This document shows positions 2,926 to 16,992 of a stretch of DNA of 64,000 nucleotides, one piece after another (within the stretch, counting starts at the first letter, position 1; every line of letters begins with the position of its first letter). The position numbers were made by a program, and so were the translations under genes. This DNA comes from Phycisphaerales bacterium. Its GTDB lineage: Bacteria > Planctomycetota > Phycisphaerae > Phycisphaerales > SM1A02. Below the pieces are notes generated by a model. That model did not search any database. It saw only the letters and a list, made by a program, of their open reading frames with translations, and was not told the DNA's origin. The DNA lies in the NCBI GenBank assembly GCA_009691805.1, contig SIAK01000004.1, positions 1-64,000 of the forward strand, written 5' to 3'.

Positions 2926-2995
2926 CCGTTGAGAGACTAGCAGACGGTCGTCTCGAGGCGGGACGGATGCTGCGCGCTCGGAGTACTATGGTTCG

Positions 2996-3631
2996 ATGCC
3001 GTTGGAACCGTCTGATTTTCTCAAAGTCATGGACCGTGGTGGTTGGGTCATGTGGCCCATGCTCTGCCTCAGCGTCATCTCGCTCGCCTTCGCGATTGAA
3101 CGCGCGTGGTTCTGGTGGAACCTCCATCGTCCAAGCCGCGTCGAGCGATACCGCCAATTGCTTACAGCGCTCCGTGCAGGACAACGCGACAAGATCGAGG
3201 CGTTGATTTCGAAGGACGATGACCTCTACAGCGAGCTTGCCAAGCGCATGCTTGATGACGGAAGCGATGACGCGATCGCGATGGAAGGTGTTGAAGATGT
3301 GCGTCCACGCATCGATCGATTCATGAACATTTTTTCGACGACGATCACTGCGGCACCGATGCTCGGGATTCTTGGCACGGTGACGGGCATCATTTCGTCG
3401 TTTGATCTTTTGGGCGGTGTCGGTGGCGGAGGCGTCGATCCACGCGATGTTTCAAGCGGCATTGGTGAAGCGCTGATCACCACCGCGAGCGGTCTTGCGG
3501 TCGCGCTCGCCACGCTGTTTCCGTACATGTTCTATCGCGCGCAAGCGGAACGCGCGCTCGGGCGACTCGAGTCTCTCATCGCTGCCGCGAAGATTGGTCT
3601 CGGTCCCGTACGCAACTGGTCCACCCGTTAA
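2996..3631 (+). CDS. MotA/TolQ/ExbB proton channel family protein
   Basis: Inner-membrane channel subunit that uses proton motive force to drive a partner (ExbD/TolR type). In 211 residues it has one hydrophobic segment near residues 17-37, a cytoplasmic stretch, and two further segments at about 118-140 and 160-182. The conserved channel region is TAAPMLGILGTVTGIISSF followed by a Gly-rich loop and GIGEALITTASGLAVALATLF. It starts 70 bp after the divergent prenyl synthase. No ExbD/TolR-like partner lies beside it: the next gene is a TraB-like secreted protein only 21 bp downstream, so the two may be co-transcribed. The true partner is unknown from this window. Confidence 0.9.
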   Translation: MPLEPSDFLKVMDRGGWVMWPMLCLSVISLAFAIERAWFWWNLHRPSRVERYRQLLTALRAGQRDKIEALISKDDDLYSELAKRMLDDGSDDAIAMEGVEDVRPRIDRFMNIFSTTITAAPMLGILGTVTGIISSFDLLGGVGGGGVDPRDVSSGIGEALITTASGLAVALATLFPYMFYRAQAERALGRLESLIAAAKIGLGPVRNWSTR

Positions 3632-3652
3632 CGCGAAAGTTGAGTCTCAAAC

Positions 3653-5056
3653 ATGCGTTTCTCTCGATGGATCTGCCTTGTTGCACTGTTGTTTCCACTG
3701 TCGCTCGCCTCGCATCTCACGGCGCAAGATGCGGCTGCGTTGAGCGTGACACCACCGCCGCGCTTCATGCGCAGCGAGTCGTTTGGAAAATTCGCAGCGT
3801 TCGAAACGATCGCGCTTGCGTATCAACGCGCCGATCACACGGGACCGATCGTGTGGCTTGTTGGTGCGGTGCATGTCGGAGATGCCAAGTACTACGAACG
3901 GCTTGAGCAGTTTCTTGATGGCAAGGACCTTGTGCTCTTTGAGTCGGTGCTGCCACGCGGAGCGTTTGGCGCATTCGGCGCGACCGACAGCGCGCGCGCG
4001 CGTTCGACGCAAGATGCGATGCTCTTTCTTCGCGGCATTCTCGAGCGATACGCGCGAGAAAAGGGCGGGTATCCGGCGTCGCTTGCCGATGCGCGCGCGT
4101 TTGCAACCAGCGAAGACTCGCGTTTATCCCGTCCTGTCGAACTGAGTCGCACGGATGCTTGGGGTCACGCCCTTCGATACAGCGCGAGCGCGGATGAGTA
4201 TGCACTTGCGTCGTGGGGCAGCGATGGTTGCGAAGGCGGAACGGGCGCGGCGCTTGATCTTGTGCTGCACGCGCGTGCGGATTTGCGCGCGCCAGCGTTG
4301 TCGAAAGACATGGCAAAGAGTCCGCAGCATCGCAAACCCAAAGGCGATCTTTACAAAGATCTCGCGGATGCGCTTGGAGTTTCTTTGCAGGTGAAAGAGA
4401 TGTGCTATGACAAGGCGAACTGGACGCCTGCGGATCTTCCACTCGAGAGCGTGCTTGATCGACTTGACGCGAAGGGCGTTAGGAGTGCGACGGTTGAAAT
4501 GTTGACACGCGAAGATTCGCTGTTGAATACAGTCGTGCGATTCGGGCTTGCGATGGCTTCGAAACTGCCTGATTTCAAGCGGATTGTGATCGAGGCACTC
4601 GGCAGCGCGGGGGCGGGTGTTTCGAACACGAGCGCTGGTGCGGAAGAAGGCAAAGATGAATCGAGCGTGATCATCGGCGAGCGCAATCGCGCCGTGCTTG
4701 ATCGATTGCGAATGGAACTCGACGTGCCATCGCCGCCGCGCTCGATTGCGATCTTCTACGGCGCAGCGCACATGGCGCAGTTCGATGAGAGACTCTTAAG
4801 CGAATTCGGGATGACGCGACTTGACGATTCGCTGCGCACGTTTCGCGCGATGGAGACTGGCGAACTGAGTCTCGCGCAACTTCGCGCGCAACTTACCGCA
4901 GCAGAGGCTGCGTACCTCCAAGCGCTGACATGGACTGCCGAATCGGGCGGAAAGAAGCCGAGCCCGAAGCGCATGGCTTCTCTCGAGCAACGCGTGAAGC
5001 ACTTCACCTGGCGCGTGGACCGCGCACAGACAAATGCAGTGTTTAGCGATTCGTAG
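3653..5056 (+). CDS. TraB/PrgY-like secreted protein with an inserted pseudopilin (GspG)-like segment
   Basis: A 467-residue protein with an N-terminal signal peptide (residues 1-24, ending near LTAQ). Residues about 63-104 (VWLVGAVHVGDAKYYERL then LVLFESVLPRG) match the conserved start of the TraB/GumN-like superfamily, and residues about 363-373 (SIAIFYGAAHM) match its C-terminal motif. Between them, residues about 118-195 look like the C-terminal half of a type II secretion major pseudopilin: a helix, then KGGYPASLADA, then DAWGHALRYS, then YALASWGSDG. The function of the family in bacteria is poorly defined; a hydrolase-like role is only a guess. It sits directly after the TolQ-like channel gene and converges on the prepilin-like gene. 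Confidence 0.7.
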   Translation: MRFSRWICLVALLFPLSLASHLTAQDAAALSVTPPPRFMRSESFGKFAAFETIALAYQRADHTGPIVWLVGAVHVGDAKYYERLEQFLDGKDLVLFESVLPRGAFGAFGATDSARARSTQDAMLFLRGILERYAREKGGYPASLADARAFATSEDSRLSRPVELSRTDAWGHALRYSASADEYALASWGSDGCEGGTGAALDLVLHARADLRAPALSKDMAKSPQHRKPKGDLYKDLADALGVSLQVKEMCYDKANWTPADLPLESVLDRLDAKGVRSATVEMLTREDSLLNTVVRFGLAMASKLPDFKRIVIEALGSAGAGVSNTSAGAEEGKDESSVIIGERNRAVLDRLRMELDVPSPPRSIAIFYGAAHMAQFDERLLSEFGMTRLDDSLRTFRAMETGELSLAQLRAQLTAAEAAYLQALTWTAESGGKKPSPKRMASLEQRVKHFTWRVDRAQTNAVFSDS

Positions 5057-5062
5057 CGCTGC

Positions 5063-6157
5063 TCAGTTGCCCGTGACCGTGCCGTTTGTGCCTTGCGTCA
5101 CCGTATCTTCGTGCTCGAACAGCTCGCTGTCGAAATTGCCTCGATACGCAGCGTTAATCCACTTGCGCTGATCCATCAGGTCATTGATCATCGAGACGTT
5201 TGTGTTGCCGTCAGCGTGCAGGAGTTGCACGAAATTGCTGATGCGGCGGAGGGGAACTGCGTCCGCTTCGTAGACGGAAATCGCTGCATTGCCGCCTGTT
5301 CGAATCGAACTTCCACCGAGCAATTGCGCCGCCATGTCGGAAATCGAAAGGTCGAATGCGCGCGCGGTTGCACCTGCCGAGAAACGCGTATCAGTGTCGA
5401 GCGAAGCTTGGATGCTTTGGAACTGCGCGCCGTCGCTCGCTTCCCAGATGAGTGTCTTTGCAACGCGATGCGGAACAACCCACGGTGCGCCGACCATGTG
5501 TTCTTCTTGCTCTTTGTACAAGCCAGGAGCTGCTGCGAAACTTGACGCGAAGGTAATCATCGCGTCGGGATGGCTGATCTGACTGATCGCGTTGCAGACG
5601 AGTCCGCCGCGCACCATCACATTGTTATTCGTGAGATATCCGCCTGATCCGTATCGCATCTGCGATGCACCGTTTGGCTGCGTCGTCCACCAACCGCCGA
5701 GATAAATCGCGTTGTATCCAAACGCAGGTTGCTGCGCGACGATCGCCTGATGACCTGTGGGGTTGCCATCGTTCCAATCGGGAAGATCAATCTCAAGATA
5801 GTCGACAAGCAACGGGAAGGAATAATCCATGAACGGAAGCAAGCGCCACGGATACATCACCGCATTCGCTTGCGCGATCTGATTGCCCGACTTGTCCTTG
5901 TATCGCACGCGCCACGCGGTCTGCGTTCCCGGATCGATCGCGCCAGGAAGGCAACGATCGTCGTAGGTGTTCGCGTAGGAAATCCAGGCGAGTCCAACCT
6001 GCTTGAGATCGGAGAGCGATCGTGTCTGCCGGCTCTTGCGGCCGGCAGCAGAGAGTCCAGAACTGAGAAGCGAGAGAAGGAGTGCGATGACACCGATCAC
6101 GACGAGGAGCTCGACGATGGTGAATCCAGCGTTGGGTTTCTGGCGATGCTTGGTCAT
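5063..6157 (-). CDS. Prepilin-type N-terminal methylation domain protein (planctomycete type)
   Basis: A 364-residue protein beginning with a short basic leader and the type IV prepilin cleavage motif GFTIVELLVVIGVIALLLS at residues 11-29; cleavage is expected after Gly11. The remainder is a large extracytoplasmic domain with many aromatic and Gly residues, including ADGNTNVS near the C-terminus, which resembles the ending of the planctomycete pseudopilin-like families. Such proteins are abundant in planctomycetes and their individual roles are unknown. It converges with the TraB-like gene, separated by 6 bp. No pilus assembly genes are nearby. Confidence 0.85.
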   Translation of the reverse strand: MTKHRQKPNAGFTIVELLVVIGVIALLLSLLSSGLSAAGRKSRQTRSLSDLKQVGLAWISYANTYDDRCLPGAIDPGTQTAWRVRYKDKSGNQIAQANAVMYPWRLLPFMDYSFPLLVDYLEIDLPDWNDGNPTGHQAIVAQQPAFGYNAIYLGGWWTTQPNGASQMRYGSGGYLTNNNVMVRGGLVCNAISQISHPDAMITFASSFAAAPGLYKEQEEHMVGAPWVVPHRVAKTLIWEASDGAQFQSIQASLDTDTRFSAGATARAFDLSISDMAAQLLGGSSIRTGGNAAISVYEADAVPLRRISNFVQLLHADGNTNVSMINDLMDQRKWINAAYRGNFDSELFEHEDTVTQGTNGTVTGN

Positions 6158-6270
6158 GCGGACTTTCCTTGAAGGCAGAGTTCGGAGGCAGTAGCCGTAC
6201 TAGGCAATATACGAAGCCTGCTTCGAATCAGCGGCAGGTTCCGCTCGAGATCGTGAAAGCTATGCGGCTC

Positions 6271-7089
6271 TCAGTACGGAAGTGGCGAGGCTGGGAAGCA
6301 GGTGACGGTCGGTTCGCCGCGCAATCGTCGGGCTATATCGGACAGAATCCGCTCATCGGTAAAACCGCTGAAATGTCCGTACTGCCCCGGTTGGACGGGG
6401 ACCCACCAAAGCGGCCACGCTGCGGGTGCGGCAAACTCCTCGCCCACGGTGACGTCGTCCGTCACGGCGTAGCAGTGGAGTTCGTAGCAGCAGTTTGGAA
6501 GTTCTTCGTCGAGTTCGACGAGAAAATCTGAGGTGATTTGCATGTCCTCCGATTGCGGAAACTGAAACGGCACGGAGGCAACGCGAGCGCCTAGGTGAGG
6601 CGTCGAGATCGTGTAAAGCTGGCGGATGGGGATGCGCTCGCCGCCATGCTTGGTGCAGGCGGCATCGCGTGCGACGAGTCCGCCCATCGAAAACGCGATG
6701 ACGTCGACTTCAGGAATTGCGTCTTCTGCTCCGAGATGCAGCCCCGCGCGCACAGATTGAAAAAGGTGCTCGCGCGCTTCCGCGAAGGTCGTCGTGCCGA
6801 AGAAGTCGACTTCGACGACTGTCGTGTCCTTCAGCGTTGGCGCGATGACCGCGAGGATCGACTCGCTTGAAATGCTTGGGTCGGCGATGCCACCGATGAT
6901 GATCACGCTTCGCGCCGCGGGTTTGGGGTCAGCGCGCATCCGTTCGAAGTCACGATGCGCGGCATCGACGGAGACTGGGAACGACGGATTACTTTCGCGC
7001 GGTGGTGAAAAACATCCGATGAGCGCGACGGGAAGAAACGGCGCGATGCATCCGATGAGGAGTGATCGCAGAGATCTCGATGCGTGCAT
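6271..7089 (-). CDS. Alpha/beta-hydrolase (lipase/PGAP1-like) lipoprotein
   Basis: Putative esterase/lipase anchored as a lipoprotein. From the ATG at 7089 the protein starts MHASRSLRSLLIGC and reaches a second lipobox-like site ALIGC with Cys26, so it is probably exported and lipidated. The nucleophile elbow is VIAFSMGGLVARD with Ser at residue 134 (an SMGG variant of GxSxG), preceded by a core strand SVIIIGGIAD. A later YTISTPHLGARVAS segment is typical of lipase-like hydrolases. An upstream ATG at 7101 is possible; the longer frame to 7212 would run into ispG and is unlikely. It follows ispG by about 11-23 bp, so it may be co-transcribed. Substrate unknown. Confidence 0.75.
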   Translation of the reverse strand: MHASRSLRSLLIGCIAPFLPVALIGCFSPPRESNPSFPVSVDAAHRDFERMRADPKPAARSVIIIGGIADPSISSESILAVIAPTLKDTTVVEVDFFGTTTFAEAREHLFQSVRAGLHLGAEDAIPEVDVIAFSMGGLVARDAACTKHGGERIPIRQLYTISTPHLGARVASVPFQFPQSEDMQITSDFLVELDEELPNCCYELHCYAVTDDVTVGEEFAAPAAWPLWWVPVQPGQYGHFSGFTDERILSDIARRLRGEPTVTCFPASPLPY

Positions 7090-9873: not shown

Positions 9874-9908
9874 ACGGACGCCGCGATGAATATCGCGGCG
9901 TCCGTTTT
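9874..9908. terminator. Bidirectional rho-independent terminator
   Basis: A perfect 13-bp stem (CGGACGCCGCGAT with its complement) closes a short AT loop and is followed by TTTT on the plus strand. It sits between the MFS gene (plus) and the convergent 75-residue gene (minus), so it can serve both. Confidence 0.85.
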
Positions 9909-9926: not shown

Positions 9927-10154
9927 TCAGTAGCTGCTGTGGTCGCTGCACTCCGCGCGGATCCGTCGCAGCGTTTCGTCCATTGCTTCGAGCGCGTTTC
10001 CTGCGGAGTGGAGTGCGCGGTCGATGGGCTCAATCGAGCGTTCGTAGAACGCACGCGAGACATCATCGCGCCAGGACTCCTTCACCTGCATCCATGCCGC
10101 GAGAAGGTCTTTGTGCGCGCCCGAAAGTTGCAGGCGCGTGTCGTTCATACTCAT
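9927..10154 (-). CDS. Small helical protein with W-R-D-x5-F motif (WXG-like cassette, third gene)
   Basis: A 75-residue, wholly helical and charged protein that I do not recognise by name. It contains SWRDDVSRAF, with Trp followed by Arg-Asp and a Phe exactly eight positions after the Trp. The first gene of the cassette (10778-11050) has TWKDQEQQKF with the same W-[KR]-D-x5-F spacing. No signal peptide, membrane segment or cysteine cluster is seen apart from a single Cys near the end. Its start overlaps the 3-prime end of the 199-residue gene by 4 bp, so translation is probably coupled. A WXG100-like helical hairpin that pairs with its neighbour is my inference. Confidence 0.7.
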   Translation of the reverse strand: MSMNDTRLQLSGAHKDLLAAWMQVKESWRDDVSRAFYERSIEPIDRALHSAGNALEAMDETLRRIRAECSDHSSY

Positions 10155-10750
10155 GCTGCACCACCTTCGGTTGACGTTGTCTCTTCAGTCTCGGGCGCGG
10201 TTTCGCCGGAGCGGCGCATCGAGCGAATCGAGTCGTTGGCTTGTTCGAGTTGTTGCGCGAGCGTGGGCGTTGGAGTCGCCACATACGCTTCAAGCGCGAG
10301 CACCATGTTGCGAAGGCGCAAGATCGCGTTCGGCATATCGCGGTCGATCATTCCCGCTGCAGATCCGACCGCACCTTTGTAGATCGCAAACTCACGCTCG
10401 AGTGCCACGTGCCAACGCTTGGCGGCATTGAGTCGCTGTTGTGCGTCTTCAAGCACGCGAATCGCTTTCTGAATCGCCTTCTTCTCATCGATGATGGAAG
10501 GGCGCGCCGTGCCGCCCATGGTTTGCAACTCTTTGCGAAACTTCGCACCCTTCGCGGAGTTCAGTTCTTCTGCGAGTTTAGGAATGACTCGCTTCAAGTG
10601 TGGAATGCGCTCGCGTTCAAGCCACACGAATGTGCCGCGAATCTCGCTCTCCGCGCTTGAGAGTGCGATCATGCACTGCTCACGAAATCGCACGATCGCA
10701 TGACGGAAGCGCTCGAGAGCCTCAATAGAAGTGACGTTGGCTGGTCCCAC
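10151..10750 (-). CDS. Coiled-coil protein of the WXG-like cassette (second gene)
   Basis: A 199-residue, strongly helical protein rich in Arg, Lys, Glu and Ala, with a long central coiled-coil (about residues 70-135, including EKKAIQKAIRVLEDAQQRLNA broken only by charged heptads). There is no signal peptide or membrane segment. The C-terminal 25 residues are Ser/Thr/Glu-rich and probably disordered. I recall proteins of similar size and pattern beside WXG100-type genes in other phyla, but have no assigned function for them. It lies between the two small W-[KR]-D-x5-F proteins, 27 bp after the first and overlapping the third by 4 bp, so the three most likely form one operon. Confidence 0.7.
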   Translation of the reverse strand: MGPANVTSIEALERFRHAIVRFREQCMIALSSAESEIRGTFVWLERERIPHLKRVIPKLAEELNSAKGAKFRKELQTMGGTARPSIIDEKKAIQKAIRVLEDAQQRLNAAKRWHVALEREFAIYKGAVGSAAGMIDRDMPNAILRLRNMVLALEAYVATPTPTLAQQLEQANDSIRSMRRSGETAPETEETTSTEGGAA

Positions 10751-10777
10751 GACGGCGATACTCCACGAAGGCGTTGT

Positions 10778-11050
10778 TTAGCGCTGTTTGAAGTATTCCT
10801 CAACGCGATCAGCCTTGCGCGCGAGGAACGGAACATGCTGCTCACTCACGCGAAGGAACTTCACGAGTACCTTCATCGTGTTCTCGAACTCTTCTTGAAA
10901 CTTCTGCTGCTCCTGATCCTTCCACGTCTGATTGAGCGAACCCATCTTCGCGCCCATCGCAGAAACTTGCGCTTGCAGTTCCGTGTTGAAACGGTGAAGG
11001 TCCGCGGCGAATCGCCGCATTTCGGCTGGATCAACGATGGCTTTCGACAT
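10778..11050 (-). CDS. WXG100-like small helical protein (first gene of cassette)
   Basis: A 90-residue protein with the size, all-helical composition and central Trp of the WXG100/ESAT-6 superfamily. Helix one spans about residues 8-35, a turn carries LNQTWKDQEQQKF (Trp-Lys-Asp in place of Trp-x-Gly), and helix two continues to the C-terminus, ending VEEYFKQR. Classical WXG100 proteins are dimers exported by type VII secretion, but no EccC/EssC-type ATPase is in this window. The gene leads a three-gene operon and is divergent from the aldehyde dehydrogenase across 56 bp. A GGAG lies about 10 bases before its ATG. Confidence 0.7.
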   Translation of the reverse strand: MSKAIVDPAEMRRFAADLHRFNTELQAQVSAMGAKMGSLNQTWKDQEQQKFQEEFENTMKVLVKFLRVSEQHVPFLARKADRVEEYFKQR

Positions 11051-11106
11051 AGAGGGGGCTCCAACTTGTCATACTACGGTCTCATTCATCAAAGAGGGAG
11101 TTTCAT

Positions 11107-12549
11107 TTGGACTTTGCACCCTGTCTCATCGATGGTTGCCTCCACACCGCAAGTGATGGCGCACCGCTGGAAGTCAAGAATCCCGCGACAAACGAGGTCA
11201 TAGGCGTGATGCCGATGTGCTCTGCTGCGGATGCGGCGTCTGCAGCCGATGCTGCAGTGCGCGCGTTTGCGAGTTGGAAGCGCACGACCGCTGCCGAACG
11301 CGCGCGTCTCCTTCGCACAGTGGCGGCAAGGCTGCGCACTGCGCGTGATCTGTTCGCGAAGACGATCACGCTTGAGTGCGGGAAGCCGATTCTCGAAGCG
11401 CGCGGCGAGGTGGAATACTCCGCGAGTTTTTTCGACGCTGCAGCGAGCGCGGGGGAGATGCTCGAGGGGAGCACGATTGCCTCGCGCATCGCCGATCGAC
11501 GGGTGTTTGCTGTGCGAGAACCGCTCGGCGCGACCATGGCGATTACGCCGTGGAACTTCCCACTCGCGATGATCGCGCGCAAGACCGGTCCGGCGCTTGC
11601 AGCAGGTTGCACGCAGGTGGTGAAGCCGAGTGAAGAGACGCCCTTGTCCGCGTCGCTGCTTGCGCAAGCGATGCTCGAGTGCGGCATTCCTGCGGGAGTT
11701 TTCAATTGTGTGACCGGAGATGCAGCGACGATTGTCGGCGCTCTGCTCAAGCACGAGGGCATGCGCAAACTTTCTTTCACAGGTTCGACGGAAGTCGGTC
11801 GTTTGCTCGCGCGGCAAGCCTCGGATCGATTGGTGAAGTGTGCGCTTGAACTCGGCGGTAATGCGCCATTTATTGTGTTTGCCGATGCGGATCTTGCGCG
11901 CGCGGCCGAGCAACTGATCGCAGCGAAGTTTCGATTCATGGGGCAGACATGCATCAGCGCGAATCGTGTGTATGTCGAACGCGGTGTGCTTGCGCAGTTC
12001 ACTGCGCTGCTCGAAACAAGAATGGACGCGCTCACTATCGGAGATCCGCTGCTTGAGTCCACGCGCATCGGTCCACTTATCAATGATGCGGCGGTTGCCA
12101 AGGTGCAACGTCACGTGGATGATGCGATCAAGCACGGTGCGAAGTTGCGTCGCGGCGGAAGCGTTGCACGCCTTGCAGGAATGTCGCGACGATTCTTCGA
12201 GCCAACCCTGCTCGAAGGCGGATCGTCTTCGATGGCGTGTGCATGCGAGGAGACGTTCGGCCCTGTGCTCACGCTGCACGCATTCGACTCAGAGCAAGAA
12301 GTCATCACCAGCGCGAACGCTGTTTCCGTCGGGCTCGCGGCGTATGTCATGACGCAGGACTCCGATCGACTCTGGCGGGTGGTTGAACAACTCGACGCAG
12401 GCGTCATTGGCGCCAACGACGGCGCACCGAGCGCTGCCGAAGCACCGTTTGGCGGATTCAAAGAATCCGGCTACGGCAAAGAGGGCGGTCGCATGGGCGT
12501 GGAGGAGTACACGCGCGTGAAGTACATCTCCATGCGCGTTCGCGGTTGA
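11107..12549 (+). CDS. NAD(P)-dependent aldehyde dehydrogenase (succinate-semialdehyde dehydrogenase-like)
   Basis: Oxidises an aldehyde to the acid. The start is a TTG at 11107, supported by an AGAGGGAG ribosome binding site about 7 bases upstream; no ATG fits the family N-terminus. The 480-residue protein has ITPWNFPLAMIARKTGPALAAG, the Rossmann glycine motif FTGSTEVGRLL, the catalytic glutamate in ALELGGNAPFIV, the catalytic cysteine in GQTCISANRVYVE, and the C-terminal PFGGFKESGYGKEGG. This pattern fits the GabD/SSADH branch, but the substrate is not proven. It converges with rpoD through a shared terminator. Confidence 0.9.
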   Translation: MDFAPCLIDGCLHTASDGAPLEVKNPATNEVIGVMPMCSAADAASAADAAVRAFASWKRTTAAERARLLRTVAARLRTARDLFAKTITLECGKPILEARGEVEYSASFFDAAASAGEMLEGSTIASRIADRRVFAVREPLGATMAITPWNFPLAMIARKTGPALAAGCTQVVKPSEETPLSASLLAQAMLECGIPAGVFNCVTGDAATIVGALLKHEGMRKLSFTGSTEVGRLLARQASDRLVKCALELGGNAPFIVFADADLARAAEQLIAAKFRFMGQTCISANRVYVERGVLAQFTALLETRMDALTIGDPLLESTRIGPLINDAAVAKVQRHVDDAIKHGAKLRRGGSVARLAGMSRRFFEPTLLEGGSSSMACACEETFGPVLTLHAFDSEQEVITSANAVSVGLAAYVMTQDSDRLWRVVEQLDAGVIGANDGAPSAAEAPFGGFKESGYGKEGGRMGVEEYTRVKYISMRVRG

Positions 12550-12585
12550 TCGAATGACCTTGGGTGGTGCGTGAACGCATCGAAA

Positions 12586-12620
12586 GAAAAAGGGGTCGCC
12601 GATGTGGCGACCCCTTTGAA
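12586..12620. terminator. Bidirectional rho-independent terminator
   Basis: A 12-bp GC-rich stem (AAAGGGGTCGCC with its complement) and a short loop, flanked by an A-run on the left and CTTTG on the right, so a T-run follows on the minus strand. It lies between the convergent aldehyde dehydrogenase and rpoD. Confidence 0.85.
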
Positions 12621-12652
12621 GAGTGCTGCTTTTTCGATCGCGGAAGCAGTCG

Positions 12653-14587
12653 TCAGTCGGATGCCATCTCGACGTCCAACACTTCGATCGTCTCTTCTTC
12701 GGGTGAACCTGGGAGGAAACTCGCGAGGCGCTGGCGGCGCACAGGGTGCTGCAACTTGCGGATCGCCTTCGCTTCGACCTGGCGCACGCGCTCGCGCGTG
12801 ACCTTGAAAATGCGACCGACTTCTTCGAGTGTGTAGATGTAGCCGTCGCCGATGCCGTAGCGCAACTTCAGAATCTCGCGCTCGCGATACGTGAGGGTCT
12901 TGAGCACATCGCTGATGCGTTGGCGCAACATTTCGTTGGTCGCGCTTTCCGCAGGGCTCTCTTGACGCTCGTCTTCGATGAAGTCGCCGAAGTGCGAATC
13001 TTCGCTTTCGCCGACAGGACGATCGAGCGAGATCGGATGACGCGAGATCTTCATCACGCGACGCGTCTCGTCGATCGGCATCTTCGCCTTCACGGAAATC
13101 TCTTCCATTGTCGGCTCGCGACCGAGCTCTTGGAGAAGACCCTTCTGAATGTTGCGAAGCTTCGACATCGTCTCGATCATGTGGACGGGCACGCGAATCG
13201 TGCGCGCATGATCGGCAATCGCGCGGGTAATCGCCTGGCGAATCCACCACGTCGCGTACGTCGAGAACTTGTAGCCTCGCTTGTACTCGTACTTGTCGAC
13301 AGCACGCATGAGTCCCGTGTTGCCCTCTTGAATAATGTCGAGGAAGGGGAGGCCGCGATTGCGATACTTCTTCGCGATCGACACGACGAGTCGCAAGTTG
13401 CCGCCCGAAAGATCGCGCTTGGCTTGTTCGTACTCGACGAAGACGCGGCGCAAGTCAAGCATGCGACGATCGAAATCTTCGTTGCCCTCCATGACGAGGC
13501 TGCGAAGACCTTCGTGCTCTTCGCGCATGACGAAAATATCTTCAGGGTCGTATCGCTCTGGATGGCGCGAGGCCTTCTCGACGGACTTTTCGACTTCCTT
13601 GATCTTCTTCGCGATGCCGACCAACTTGCGGTACATCGGAATGATCTTGCCTGTGCGGAGGGAACACTCTTCGAGCAGCGTGCCGATGCGGCGACGACGA
13701 AGCGCAACTTCGCGAACATGCTCCGCGCGAGCAGCAGCGGAGAATTTGCCTCTTTCAGACTCTTCCCAAACTTGCTGATTCAGTCGAAGCAGTTTTTCGA
13801 TCGTCGGAAGATTGTTCGGGATGCGCTTCTCAATGCGCTGCTTCGCGTGCGGCTCCGCAGTGGAGATGCGCATCGTGCGATCGAACGGCAGCTTCTGCGC
13901 CATGACATCTTTGAGGGTGTCGACGGCCATGCGGCCTGCGTAGTCGCTCTCGAGCGTGCGACGGCGGAAGATCATGCGCGTCGTTTCGATCTTCTTTGCA
14001 AGGCGAATCTCTTCTTCGCGAGTGAGCAGCGGAATCGTGCCCATCTGCGTCAGGTACATGCGGATCGGATCGTCGATGCGCTTCGAGCCTGCTTCGGCGA
14101 GTGCGCGTTCGACCACTGCTTGCACTTCCGAGTCATCGAGAATGTCTTCATCGACATCGAAGTCATCTGCCTCTGCCTCTTCCGGTCCCTTGCCATCGAT
14201 CTTGCGCTTCTGCTTCGCTGCTTCCGCGCGCGCGAGCACGCGAGCTTGCTCGTTCTTGAGTTTCTGCGCGGCAGCTTCTTTCGTCTGCTTCGTTTCCTTC
14301 GCAGGTTTTCCATCTTTGTTCTTGCGCGGTTCATCGCGTTGGAACTTCAAGTTCGTTTGCAGTGGTGCGACGAAGCACACGAGGTTGCCTCGGCGGATCT
14401 CACCTTCTTCGAGCAGATTGATATTGCGCTCACCGATGAAGACCAACAACTCATCGAGCCGTTCTGGATCGACGAACTCATCCGGAAGGCAAGTGTTGAG
14501 TTCTTCGTAGCTGATCCATCCACGCGAAGTTCCATGCTCGAGCAACTCGCGAAGGACTGGGGTAAACGATTCGATGGACATGCTCAC
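12653..14587 (-). CDS. rpoD: RNA polymerase primary sigma factor (sigma-70)
   Basis: Principal sigma factor directing promoter recognition. The 644-residue protein has a region 1.1-like N-terminus ([18 protein letters not shown]), then a Lys/Glu-rich linker of about 60 residues, region 1.2 ([21 protein letters not shown]), a non-conserved spacer, region 2 ([20 protein letters not shown], then the -10 reading helix around [17 protein letters not shown]), region 3 and region 4 ([17 protein letters not shown] and the helix-turn-helix [19 protein letters not shown]). The GTG start at 14587 overlaps the dnaG stop (GTGA); an ATG two codons later is an alternative. Gene order dnaG-rpoD is the classical macromolecular synthesis operon. 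Confidence 0.96.
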
Positions 14588-16992
14588 GGGTTGGCTCCAA
14601 GATTCCCCGACTTTGGAAGTCGGCGGATGGCTGTCGGGTCAGCGCCACGGGCGCGCATGTTGTGCATTCGGGTTTCAGTTAACGCATCTGCGGACGAGCA
14701 GACTTTGTCGACTGGTGGGACAAAGACTGGTGGGACAAAGACTGGTGGGACAATGACAGGTTGGACGACGTTGGCCGGGGCCGTTTCAGCGCTGTCAGAT
14801 TGGACGGGGAGGACGCTATCGGCATTCTGAGATGTTCTGCCTGACGAGTCGACGACGGTCATGGTGGATGGGGCCAATGAAACCGTCGTCGTGGGACGCA
14901 TATGGAAATGTGGGTCGGACGTTAGGGTCGAATCTGTCTGGTCTGCGCGGTCGCTGTCGTGAAAAAAATCACCTCGTACTTCGGTCAGCCCATTCGCACG
15001 CACTCGATCGCTTTCGTGCCCCGTTCGAGGCGCATGATCGCGTGCAAGCAAGCCACCATCTAACCGTTCCATCGGGCTTGAGTTGCTTCCAAATGCGTTT
15101 GGCTGATGCCGCACGCTGAGACCTTCAAGAATCTTCCACGCCGAGCGAAGCGCGGCGCGAAGTTCATCAATCGTAGGCTCCTCACTTCTCGGAGGCACTC
15201 CGACAAGTCCGTGAGGCCGCAGAATCTTGTCGAGTTCTAAGACGAGTGCACGCGCAGTGCGCTGCGCTTCCGATCCTTCAATTTCTGAAAGAAGCGAAGC
15301 AAACCTCAGCGTTTTGTTTGACTCTGCCGCTTCCACAATCGCGCGCCATATCTCGCGATGCTCGGGGAGCACAAAGGACTCGAGGGCGAGTGCTTCCGAA
15401 ATCGGAAGTGATCCTTCACCAGCGATTGCGACGGGAGTCTTCGCGAGTGATGGATCCGTCACGAGTGGTGCTAAGAGATGACCTTGCGCGCTGATTTGCG
15501 CGCGTTCCTTCGGGCTTCGCGTTGCGATCGAACGTCCAACAGGAGTGTTTGCCGCAGTCGATGCAGTGGCGAGTGGGGATTCACCTGATTTGCCGCGCGC
15601 GCTCATCTTCGCAGCGAGCGCGAGGACTTCAGTTTCGAGATCTTTCGACGAGATGCGCAGCGTCGGCGCGAGCGTATCGAGCACGAGTTGCCGACGAATG
15701 CCTGGCATATTCGCGAAGCCCAACTCCGCCAGTCGGAGCGCAGTTTTTTCAGCGAGCGATTGCGTCTCCGAAATGCCGTCACATTTCTCTGCTTGCTTGC
15801 GCAGTCGAGTCAACATGTAGTTGAGCGCGGTCACAGACTTGCGCATGGCTTCTTCGAAACGCGCGGGTCCGTTTTCTTGCTTGAGCAGGTCATCGGGATC
15901 GAGTCGATCGGGAAGCGTGCAGATATGCACGTCGATCTTCACTTGGAAGAAGACTTCAATCGCGCGATCGGCGGCCTTCTGTCCTGCCTCGTCGCCGTCA
16001 AAGAGCAGCGTGACGCGAGGCGCCATGAGTGCGAGTTTCGTGGCGTGTTCACGCGTGAAGGCAGTACCAAGCGTCGCGACAGTATTGGTATATCCCGCGC
16101 GATGACAGGCGATGACATCGGTGTAACCCTCCGTCACGATCGCGACACCACGATCGATGATCGATCGGCGCGCTTGATGCAGCGCGTAGAGGGTGCGGCT
16201 CTTGTGAAACACCGAGGATTCAGGGCTATTGACGTACTTCGGCTCGTCTTCAGGCTTGAGCCGACGACCGCCAAACGCGATAGGTCGACCGATTTCGTCG
16301 AAGATCGGAAAGATCAATCGGTTGCGGAGAAAGTCGTAATGTCCTTCGCCACGCGTGGACGCGCGAAGCAATCCAGCGGCGACAAACGCTTCGAAGGGTG
16401 GAACATGATCTCGCCACTGCGGGTCTGAACGCGCACGTTGGTAGGCTTCGAGAAGACCGTCGGATCGATCTGGCGCTGCGCCGAGTTCGAACTGTTCGAG
16501 AACGTCTTGGCTGTAACTTCGCTTCTGCGCTTCGCTGCGCGCGACCGCGCCTGCGGGCTCTTGCAGAATGCGGCGAAAGAATTTGAGTGCGAGAGCATTG
16601 GCGCGAATGACTTCTTCTCGCGTTGGTTCACCCACCGCACGCGCCGTCGGCTTCCACGCCGTCAACTCATAGTTGATCCGTGCGGCCAGGAACTTCAGCG
16701 CATCAATGAACTCCATCTTGTGGTAGTTCATCATGAAGTCGTAGCAATTCCCGCCAGCACCACACGCGAAGCAGTTGTAGAAGCCCGATCCCTTGTGCGT
16801 GATCACCGCAAACGACGGTGTGCGATCCGCATGGAACGGACAGAGCCCAACGAACTCGCGGCCCTTGGGCTTGAGCTGAATCGATTCGCCGATCAACTCG
16901 ACGAGATTCGTTCCCTCAAGAACGCGATCGCGGTCGCGGCTTCGATCGCCATTGCCATCGAATCGAGCAGATTGTGAATTGCTTTGAGACAC
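14584..16992 (-). CDS. dnaG: DNA primase
   Basis: Synthesises RNA primers at the replication fork. The CHC2 zinc-binding domain is present ([13 protein letters not shown], then [14 protein letters not shown]), followed by the primase core with [20 protein letters not shown] and the TOPRIM segment [20 protein letters not shown] and [18 protein letters not shown]. At 802 residues it is about 150-200 longer than usual: after about residue 620 the tail is Ser/Thr/Pro-rich and carries tandem VFVPP repeats. The start is a GTG at 16992 without a clear ribosome binding site. The gene is translationally coupled to rpoD and preceded by a 592-bp gene-free region. Confidence 0.95.
14711..14770. repeat. 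15-bp tandem repeat inside the dnaG tail
   Basis: Unit ACTGGTGGGACAAAG occurs at 14711-14725 and 14726-14740, with one mismatch at 14741-14755 and a degenerate copy at 14756-14770. On the coding strand each unit encodes five residues of a Val-Phe-Val-Pro-Pro type, so length changes keep the dnaG frame. Confidence 0.9.

What the first reader, a model, noticed from the sequence alone, without database searches (positions are those of the whole stretch)
9927..11050. Three-gene cassette of WXG100-like helical proteins with a shared W-[KR]-D-x5-F motif
Two small proteins at both ends of the cassette (90 and 75 residues) carry the same signature, TWKDQEQQKF and SWRDDVSRAF, with Trp and Phe exactly eight positions apart. 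Between them is a 199-residue coiled-coil protein; the last two genes overlap by 4 bp. The sizes and the central Trp turn resemble ESAT-6/WXG100 proteins, but the usual Gly is Asp and no type VII ATPase is nearby. I recall similar pairs in other phyla but no function. It could be a type VII-independent secreted or intracellular complex, or part of a contact-dependent or structural system.
Basis: partly seen in the sequence, partly recalled or inferred. Interest (0 to 1): 0.7.

Follow-up and report, generated by a model that had tools for sequence, protein, structure and literature searches.

The report
Gram-negative type VII-like secretion cassette
The three small genes are most of a four-gene, type VII secretion-like module conserved across planctomycete bacteria; its ATPase motor gene normally sits next in line but has moved elsewhere in this genome, so the cassette only looks like an orphan.

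Summary
The 90-aa protein (W) is a WXG100-family protein (Pfam, 41 bits, cut-off 27.3); its closest solved relatives are Helicobacter pylori HP0062 and Bacillus anthracis EsxB. The 75-aa protein (D) is a divergent helical hairpin of the same fold. The 199-aa protein (C) is predicted to be a long helical hairpin.

In relatives the usual order is W-C-D-T, where T is a ~1300-aa inner-membrane FtsK/SpoIIIE ATPase closest to EccC/EssC. In this genome T lies on another contig. The dnaG-rpoD-aldehyde dehydrogenase-W-C-D neighbourhood survives in the window, so T was split off. All 61 W+ genomes among 101 relatives carry T and D, even where the genes are scattered.

T has three FtsK/HerA-like domains with only the middle one active. 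This is the "YueA-like ATPase" that a 2012 table footnote notes with solo WXG proteins in planctomycetes and epsilon-proteobacteria. New here: partners C and D, the fixed operon, apparent vertical inheritance, and an Imm33-like domain on some C proteins.

Best reading: a reduced type VII-like export module of a diderm phylum. Secretion itself is inferred, not shown.

The parts
10778..11050 (-). Gene W: 90-aa WXG100-family helical-hairpin protein; W43-K44-D45, F51
   Evidence: PF06013 41 bits against cut-off 27.3; profile hits HP0062 3fx7 E 4.7e-12 and EsxB E 1.5e-9; W43, D45, F51 invariant in 25 homologues
10898..10927 (-). TWKDQEQQKF motif of gene W (residues 42-51)
10151..10750 (-). Gene C: 199-aa protein predicted as a long antiparallel helical hairpin (helices 9-77 and 87-158); some relatives carry a C-terminal Imm33-like domain
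   Evidence: AlphaFold2 pLDDT 90.5; alignment A3; Imm33-like PF24719 in L002, L007, L027, L051, L053, L055, L130
9927..10154 (-). Gene D: 75-aa divergent WXG100-like hairpin protein; W28-R29-D30
   Evidence: AlphaFold2 pLDDT 89.6, helices 3-25 and 30-72; best structural matches EsxB and HP0062; W28 and D30 invariant in 27 homologues
10047..10076 (-). SWRDDVSRAF motif of gene D (residues 27-36)
9874..9905 (-). Strong 14-bp hairpin just downstream of D, likely 3' end of the transcription unit (between convergent genes)
   Evidence: RNA fold -29.6 kcal/mol, z -5.9; no T-run on the minus strand, so not called by the terminator scan
11107..12549 (+). Context only: aldehyde dehydrogenase gene, divergent from W, part of the ancestral neighbourhood
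   Evidence: same gene beside W in many relatives
12653..16992 (-). Context only: rpoD and dnaG, the conserved dnaG-rpoD flank of the W-C-D-T operon in relatives

Best explanation
The cassette is the W-C-D part of a reduced, type VII secretion-like module of Planctomycetota, of which the fourth gene, the ATPase T, has moved to another place in this genome (contig C88, 10459-14373 minus). Shown: W is a WXG100-family protein; D has the same predicted hairpin fold; C is predicted as a long helical hairpin; [quoted passage not shown] W, D and T are kept or lost together. Inferred: W (as a homodimer like HP0062, or paired with D) together with C docks on T at the inner membrane and is moved, or helps move C or another client, across the inner membrane by ATP hydrolysis. 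How anything would cross the outer membrane, and what the physiological cargo is, are not shown.
For: W over the WXG100 Pfam cut-off, with HP0062 and EsxB as best PDB relatives. D folds as a hairpin with EsxB and HP0062 on top; some D orthologues pass the WXG100 cut-off (G041:C4:145920, 27.4 bits), and 7 of 27 D members hit WXG100, best E 1.5e-6. T matches EccCa 127 bits and EssC 89 bits but FtsK translocase only 21 bits; best PDB hits are EccC of T. curvata (4nh0), EccC5 and YukB. The genome has a separate strong FtsK on C46 (196 bits). Two TM segments at 238-287; one Walker A and one Walker B. The C-terminal domain of T is homologous to the middle domain (probability 97%) and to the N-terminal one (95%). 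Order W-C-D-T in 73 loci, across several classes of the phylum. W+ genomes 61/101, all T+ (Fisher p 3e-23, uncorrected for relatedness; 4 T+ W- genomes are fragmented) and all D+. In G088 W, T and D lie more than 160 kb from one another on one contig yet all are kept. The ancestral neighbourhood dnaG-rpoD-ALDH-W-C-D-T is seen in e.g. L083, L084, L086; the window keeps everything up to D.
Against: No YukD (B. subtilis control rang) and no YukC over its cut-off in 31 relatives, so the known T7SSb partners are missing. No LXG effector, and W homologues are single copy with no WXG-domain toxin found. W has no C-terminal YxxxD/E signal: it ends EEYFKQR. No outer-membrane component was identified. 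Single-copy, synteny-conserved genes are unlike most effector-delivery systems. Secretion is untested.
Confidence: 0.6

Rival explanations
1. A non-secretory housekeeping complex: T is a membrane-anchored FtsK-like motor working inside the cell (chromosome, division or envelope organisation), with W, C and D as regulatory or docking subunits that are never exported.
For: Single copy per genome; inherited with the core genes dnaG, rpoD and, in several genomes, SMC; T and RpoD distances correlate at Spearman 0.78, 0 of 2000 permutations; no T7SS accessory components or effectors found.
Against: T is much closer to EccC/EssC than to FtsK translocases, and the genome has its own separate FtsK. WXG100 with an EccC-type ATPase is, in every studied case, an export pair (established knowledge).
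Confidence: 0.25
2. An interbacterial toxin or immunity device: C proteins with an Imm33-like domain protect against, or chaperone, toxins exported through T, with W and D as targeting factors like the small partners of LXG toxins.
For: Imm33-like PF24719 domain at the C terminus of C in several lineages, best E 1e-14; Imm33 is an immunity family of polymorphic toxins (PMC3482391); the layout of two small helical proteins plus one long hairpin recalls the dual targeting factors of LXG toxins (PMC9600955, abstract only).
Against: The window's own C has no such domain. No toxin gene was seen among the neighbour families that recur beside the operon. No LXG domain in 31 relatives. Low variability and single copy.
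Confidence: 0.1
3. A defence-type ATPase module: T belongs to the FtsK/HerA ATPases of anti-phage systems (SspH, mad8) and W, C, D are its cofactors.
For: PADLOC models SspH (103 bits) and mad8 (68 bits) hit the P-loop domain of T.
Against: The hits cover only the generic ATPase core; EccCa scores higher (127 bits). W, C and D hit no defence family. The locus is not in a variable island but in a conserved housekeeping neighbourhood.
Confidence: 0.04

Closest known systems
Helicobacter pylori HP0062 with its neighbouring FtsK/SpoIIIE-domain protein (PMC3397514; PDB 3fx7, 2gts)
   Same: Best sequence match of W among solved structures (E 4.7e-12); same W-R-D in place of W-x-G; diderm host; clustered with an FtsK/SpoIIIE protein according to the paper.
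   Different: I could not examine the Helicobacter gene cluster here, so orthologues of C and D there are not established. HP0062 was proposed as a chaperone or adaptor; its function is unknown.
'Solo WXG' with a YueA-like ATPase of three HerA/FtsK domains, only the middle one active (footnote 6 of Table 1, Zhang et al. 2012, PMC3482391)
   Same: Planctomycetes are named; the ATPase architecture agrees with T.
   Different: The footnote mentions neither C nor D nor a fixed operon, and calls these systems mobile. Here W is accompanied by a second WXG-like protein and C, and the set looks vertically inherited.
Type VIIb secretion (EsxA/EssC, Bacillota) and type VIIa/ESX (EsxAB/EccC, Actinomycetota)
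   Same: The two components shared by both, a membrane EccC/EssC ATPase and a WXG100 protein (definition in PMC11217815).
   Different: Only one active ATPase domain; a long coiled-coil N-terminal part on T; no YukD, no YukC over cut-off, no LXG; diderm host.
T7SSb LXG toxins with two small targeting factors (PMC9600955)
   Same: Two small helical proteins plus one long helical-hairpin protein.
   Different: C is not an LXG protein by Pfam and carries no toxin domain; analogy only.

Membership tests
WXG100 superfamily (PF06013), protein W | Score above the curated Pfam cut-off over nearly the full length | tested here: met
   41 bits against 27.3, residues 6-85
WXG100 superfamily (PF06013), protein W | W-x-G in the turn between two helices | tested here: not met
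   Gly is Asp (W-R/K-D) in 25/25 homologues. The accepted WXG-like protein HP0062 also has WRD (PMC3397514), so W is filed as a W-x-D branch of the superfamily, not as a classical WXG protein
WXG100 superfamily, protein D | Curated Pfam score | tested here: inconclusive
   Window D 15 bits, below cut-off; the orthologue in G041 reaches 27.4 bits, over cut-off; 7 of 27 members hit, best E 1.5e-6
WXG100 superfamily, protein D | Helix-turn-helix hairpin with Trp in the turn | tested here: met
   Predicted helices 3-25 and 30-72 with W28 in the turn. EsxB Z 8.8, rmsd 1.3 A and HP0062 Z 8.5 lead the list, but Z below about 13 is weak for helical hairpins
Type VII secretion system (general) | Membrane-bound EccC/EssC-type FtsK/SpoIIIE ATPase in the same genome | tested here: met
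   T at G000:C88:10459-14373 minus, two predicted TM segments, EccCa 127 bits. It is below the NCBIfam equivalog cut-off of 509, so it is EccC-like, not EccC
Type VII secretion system (general) | WXG100 protein linked to that ATPase | tested here: met
   Adjacent in 73 W-C-D-T loci; co-occurrence 61/61 in 101 relatives; not adjacent in this genome
Type VIIb | YukD/EsaB and YukC/EssB | tested here: not met
   0 of 31 genomes with YukD, 0 of 31 over cut-off with YukC; the B. subtilis control rang for both
Type VIIa (ESX) | EccB | tested here: inconclusive
   No hit in 31 relatives, but no control genome rang either
Type VII substrates | C-terminal YxxxD/E secretion signal | tested here: not met
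   W ends EEYFKQR / EEYLQQR with invariant Tyr but no D/E at +4; D has none. Many T7SSb WXG proteins also lack it (own knowledge)
Type VII secretion system (general) | ATP-dependent export of the WXG100 protein | not testable with these tools
   Needs an experiment
Solo-WXG/YueA-like ATPase systems (Zhang et al. 2012) | ATPase with three HerA/FtsK domains, only the middle one active | tested here: met
   Single Walker A and Walker B in the middle domain in the aligned members; flanking domains homologous to it or to each other
Solo-WXG/YueA-like ATPase systems (Zhang et al. 2012) | Described as mobile | tested here: not met
   Conserved dnaG-rpoD-ALDH synteny; T and RpoD distances correlated 0.78

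The most novel reading that the evidence does not exclude
W-C-D-T is a vertically inherited, single-copy type VII-like translocase of a diderm phylum. It lacks the tested accessory membrane components of T7SSb and uses a three-part WXG-like complex (W, D and the long hairpin C) with an EccC-type motor having one active ATPase domain, for a core envelope or housekeeping task rather than for effector delivery.
Probability: 0.3. Interest if true: 0.75.

Novelty: new variant of a known kind. Interest (0 to 1): 0.5.

Why it matters
Type VII secretion is usually treated as a Gram-positive and mycobacterial system; [quoted passage not shown] A conserved WXG100 plus EccC-like ATPase operon in Planctomycetota, with two hitherto undescribed partners, would show how small such a machine can be. 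It would also give the poorly understood H. pylori HP0062 a relative outside a pathogen in which its role can be tested. It corrects a natural annotation error too: the ATPase is missed when only the local neighbourhood is read.

Tried and rejected
BLASTP of W against D found nothing; only profile and structure comparison link them. An iterative HMM that merged W and D was not used as proof of homology because it can drift.

Fold search with C gave only generic coiled coils, and Pfam gave no consistent family for its helical part, so no relationship of C to LXG, PPE or EspB is claimed.

LXG toxins, YukD, YukC and EccB were sought and not found over cut-off; EccB is inconclusive because no control rang.

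T as the ordinary FtsK translocase was rejected: the genome has a separate FtsK on C46, and NCBIfam FtsK scores 21 bits against 127 for EccCa.

A promoter scan of the region gave nothing and its two terminator-like sites were no more than chance.

Non-planctomycete titles among the hits (L130 'Cyanobacteria', L114 'Chitinophaga', L068 'Limnohabitans') were judged probably mislabelled MAGs and are not used as evidence for other phyla; this was not tested with a tree.

Full report
WHAT IS THERE. The three genes exist as described, all on the minus strand, read in the order W (10778-11050, 90 aa), C (10151-10750, 199 aa), D (9927-10154, 75 aa); C and D share an ATGA overlap. A strong 14-bp hairpin follows D (9874-9905, z -5.9) before the convergent MFS-type gene, so the transcription unit probably ends there. 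W, C and D have no predicted transmembrane segment.

THE SHARED MOTIF. W-x-D is invariant in both families (25/25 W, 27/27 D); the Phe is invariant in W but only a hydrophobic position in D. The two window proteins do not match by BLASTP. Profile-profile comparison aligns 35 columns around the Trp turn (probability 51%, E 1.6e-4).

WHAT W AND D ARE. W scores 41 bits against WXG100 (cut-off 27.3). Against solved structures its profile finds H. pylori HP0062 first (E 4.7e-12), then B. anthracis EsxB and S. aureus EsxA. HP0062 also has Trp-Arg-Asp. D is below the cut-off itself (15 bits), but an orthologue in G041 exceeds it (27.4 bits) and 7 of 27 family members hit WXG100. The predicted D structure is a confident hairpin with W28 in the turn. 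Its structural ranking is led by EsxB, HP0062 and EsxA; Z near 8.8 is not decisive alone for a helical hairpin.

WHAT C IS. C is predicted as a long antiparallel hairpin, helices 9-77 and 87-158, with no specific fold relative. In several lineages C has a C-terminal Imm33-like domain (PF24719, best E 1e-14). Imm33 is an immunity family of polymorphic toxins (PMC3482391). The window's C lacks it.

THE MISSING FOURTH GENE. In relatives the cassette is followed directly by T, a ~1300-aa protein. Counted over fetched loci, 73 show W-C-D-T, 10 W-C-D (some at contig ends), 8 C-D-W; the loci include near-duplicates and sister species. In this genome T is on contig C88 at 10459-14373 minus, beside an hrpB-type helicase, a FlgI-domain protein and SMC. 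All four genomes of the genus have T on a different contig from the cassette.

T IS EccC-LIKE. NCBIfam gives EccCa 127 bits, EssC 89, EccCb 83 and FtsK translocase 21 (all below the equivalog cut-offs). The best solved relatives are EccC of Thermomonospora curvata, EccC5 and YukB. T has two hydrophobic segments at 238-287 and a single Walker A/Walker B pair in its middle domain. Its C-terminal domain is homologous to the middle one (probability 97%) and to the N-terminal one (95%). So it has three FtsK/HerA-like domains with one active. The genome has its own separate FtsK on C46.

CO-OCCURRENCE AND HISTORY. Among 101 relatives, 61 have W and all 61 have T. Four have T without W, all in assemblies of about 200 or more contigs. 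36 have neither (Fisher p 3e-23, not corrected for relatedness). D is in the same 61 plus G014. In G088 the genes W, T and D lie at 2,831,579, 2,493,957 and 2,330,610 of one contig, yet all are kept: linkage of function without linkage of genes. Over the phylum 60 of 392 genomes have W, almost always one copy, in many families. Relatives show dnaG-rpoD-ALDH-W-C-D-T (for example L083, L084, L086). The window has dnaG (14584-16992), rpoD (12653-14587), ALDH (11107-12549), W, C, D, and then no T, so T was separated from an intact operon. T and RpoD distances correlate across 27 loci (Spearman 0.78, 0 of 2000 permutations), as expected for vertical inheritance.

WHAT IS KNOWN. A recent survey gives the components shared by all T7SS as the membrane EccC/EssC ATPase plus a WXG100 protein (PMC11217815, abstract); one review holds that the system is absent from diderm-LPS bacteria (PMC3796261). 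HP0062 is described as WXG-like with an FtsK/SpoIIIE neighbour (PMC3397514). A table footnote of Zhang et al. [quoted passage not shown] T fits the ATPase description. What the footnote does not contain is C, D, the W-C-D-T operon, its vertical inheritance, and the Imm33-like fusion. I found no other paper in the searched open-access library that describes the planctomycete system; most subscription papers could not be searched.

HOW IT PROBABLY WORKS. Shown: parts, linkage, fold class, ATPase type. Inferred: W, alone or with D, and C form a helical complex that docks on T at the inner membrane, and the one active domain of T drives transfer of this complex or of an unknown client. Against a full T7SS: no YukD, no YukC over cut-off, no LXG toxins in 31 relatives, no YxxxD/E on W, no outer-membrane part known. 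The single copy and housekeeping neighbourhood leave room for a non-secretory role (0.25). The Imm33-like domains leave some room for a toxin-related role (0.1).

VERDICT.

Noticed in passing
L002, L007, L027, L051, L053, L055, L130 (C-protein genes): The coiled-coil protein C carries a C-terminal Imm33-like domain (PF24719) in several lineages but not in the window's genus; why an immunity-type domain sits on a conserved secretion-like subunit is unexplained.
   Followed up: partly
G088:C1 (L013, L043, L163): W, T and D are scattered more than 160 kb apart in one nearly finished genome, yet all are present.
   Followed up: partly
L152 (G203), 2958-6628: A possible minimal form: W followed directly by a shorter 1006-aa T, with no C or D recognised between or beside them.
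   Followed up: no
L061-L064, L066-L069: A sister group has the order C-D-W instead of W-C-D, and no T beside the cassette.
   Followed up: partly
L035:4282-6261 minus (G000:C88): 660-aa FlgI (flagellar P-ring) domain protein with HEAT repeats next to SMC and T; conserved beside SMC in several relatives. An odd fusion with no flagellar context examined.
   Followed up: no
G022:C508:19320-19553: Weak WXG100-like match (21.9 bits) inside a 2767-aa open frame: possible large client of the system in one relative.
   Followed up: no
G045:C188:7110-8839: Second, divergent W-like and D-like matches near this genome's T fragment, separate from its main cassette on C43.
   Followed up: no
window 14584-16992 minus: The dnaG gene encodes a Pro/Val-rich tandem repeat ([14 protein letters not shown]) near its C terminus.
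   Followed up: no
window 5063-6157 minus: Prepilin-like N terminus (GFTIVELLVVIGVIAL) on a 364-aa protein, typical of the planctomycete pseudopilin-like families.
   Followed up: no
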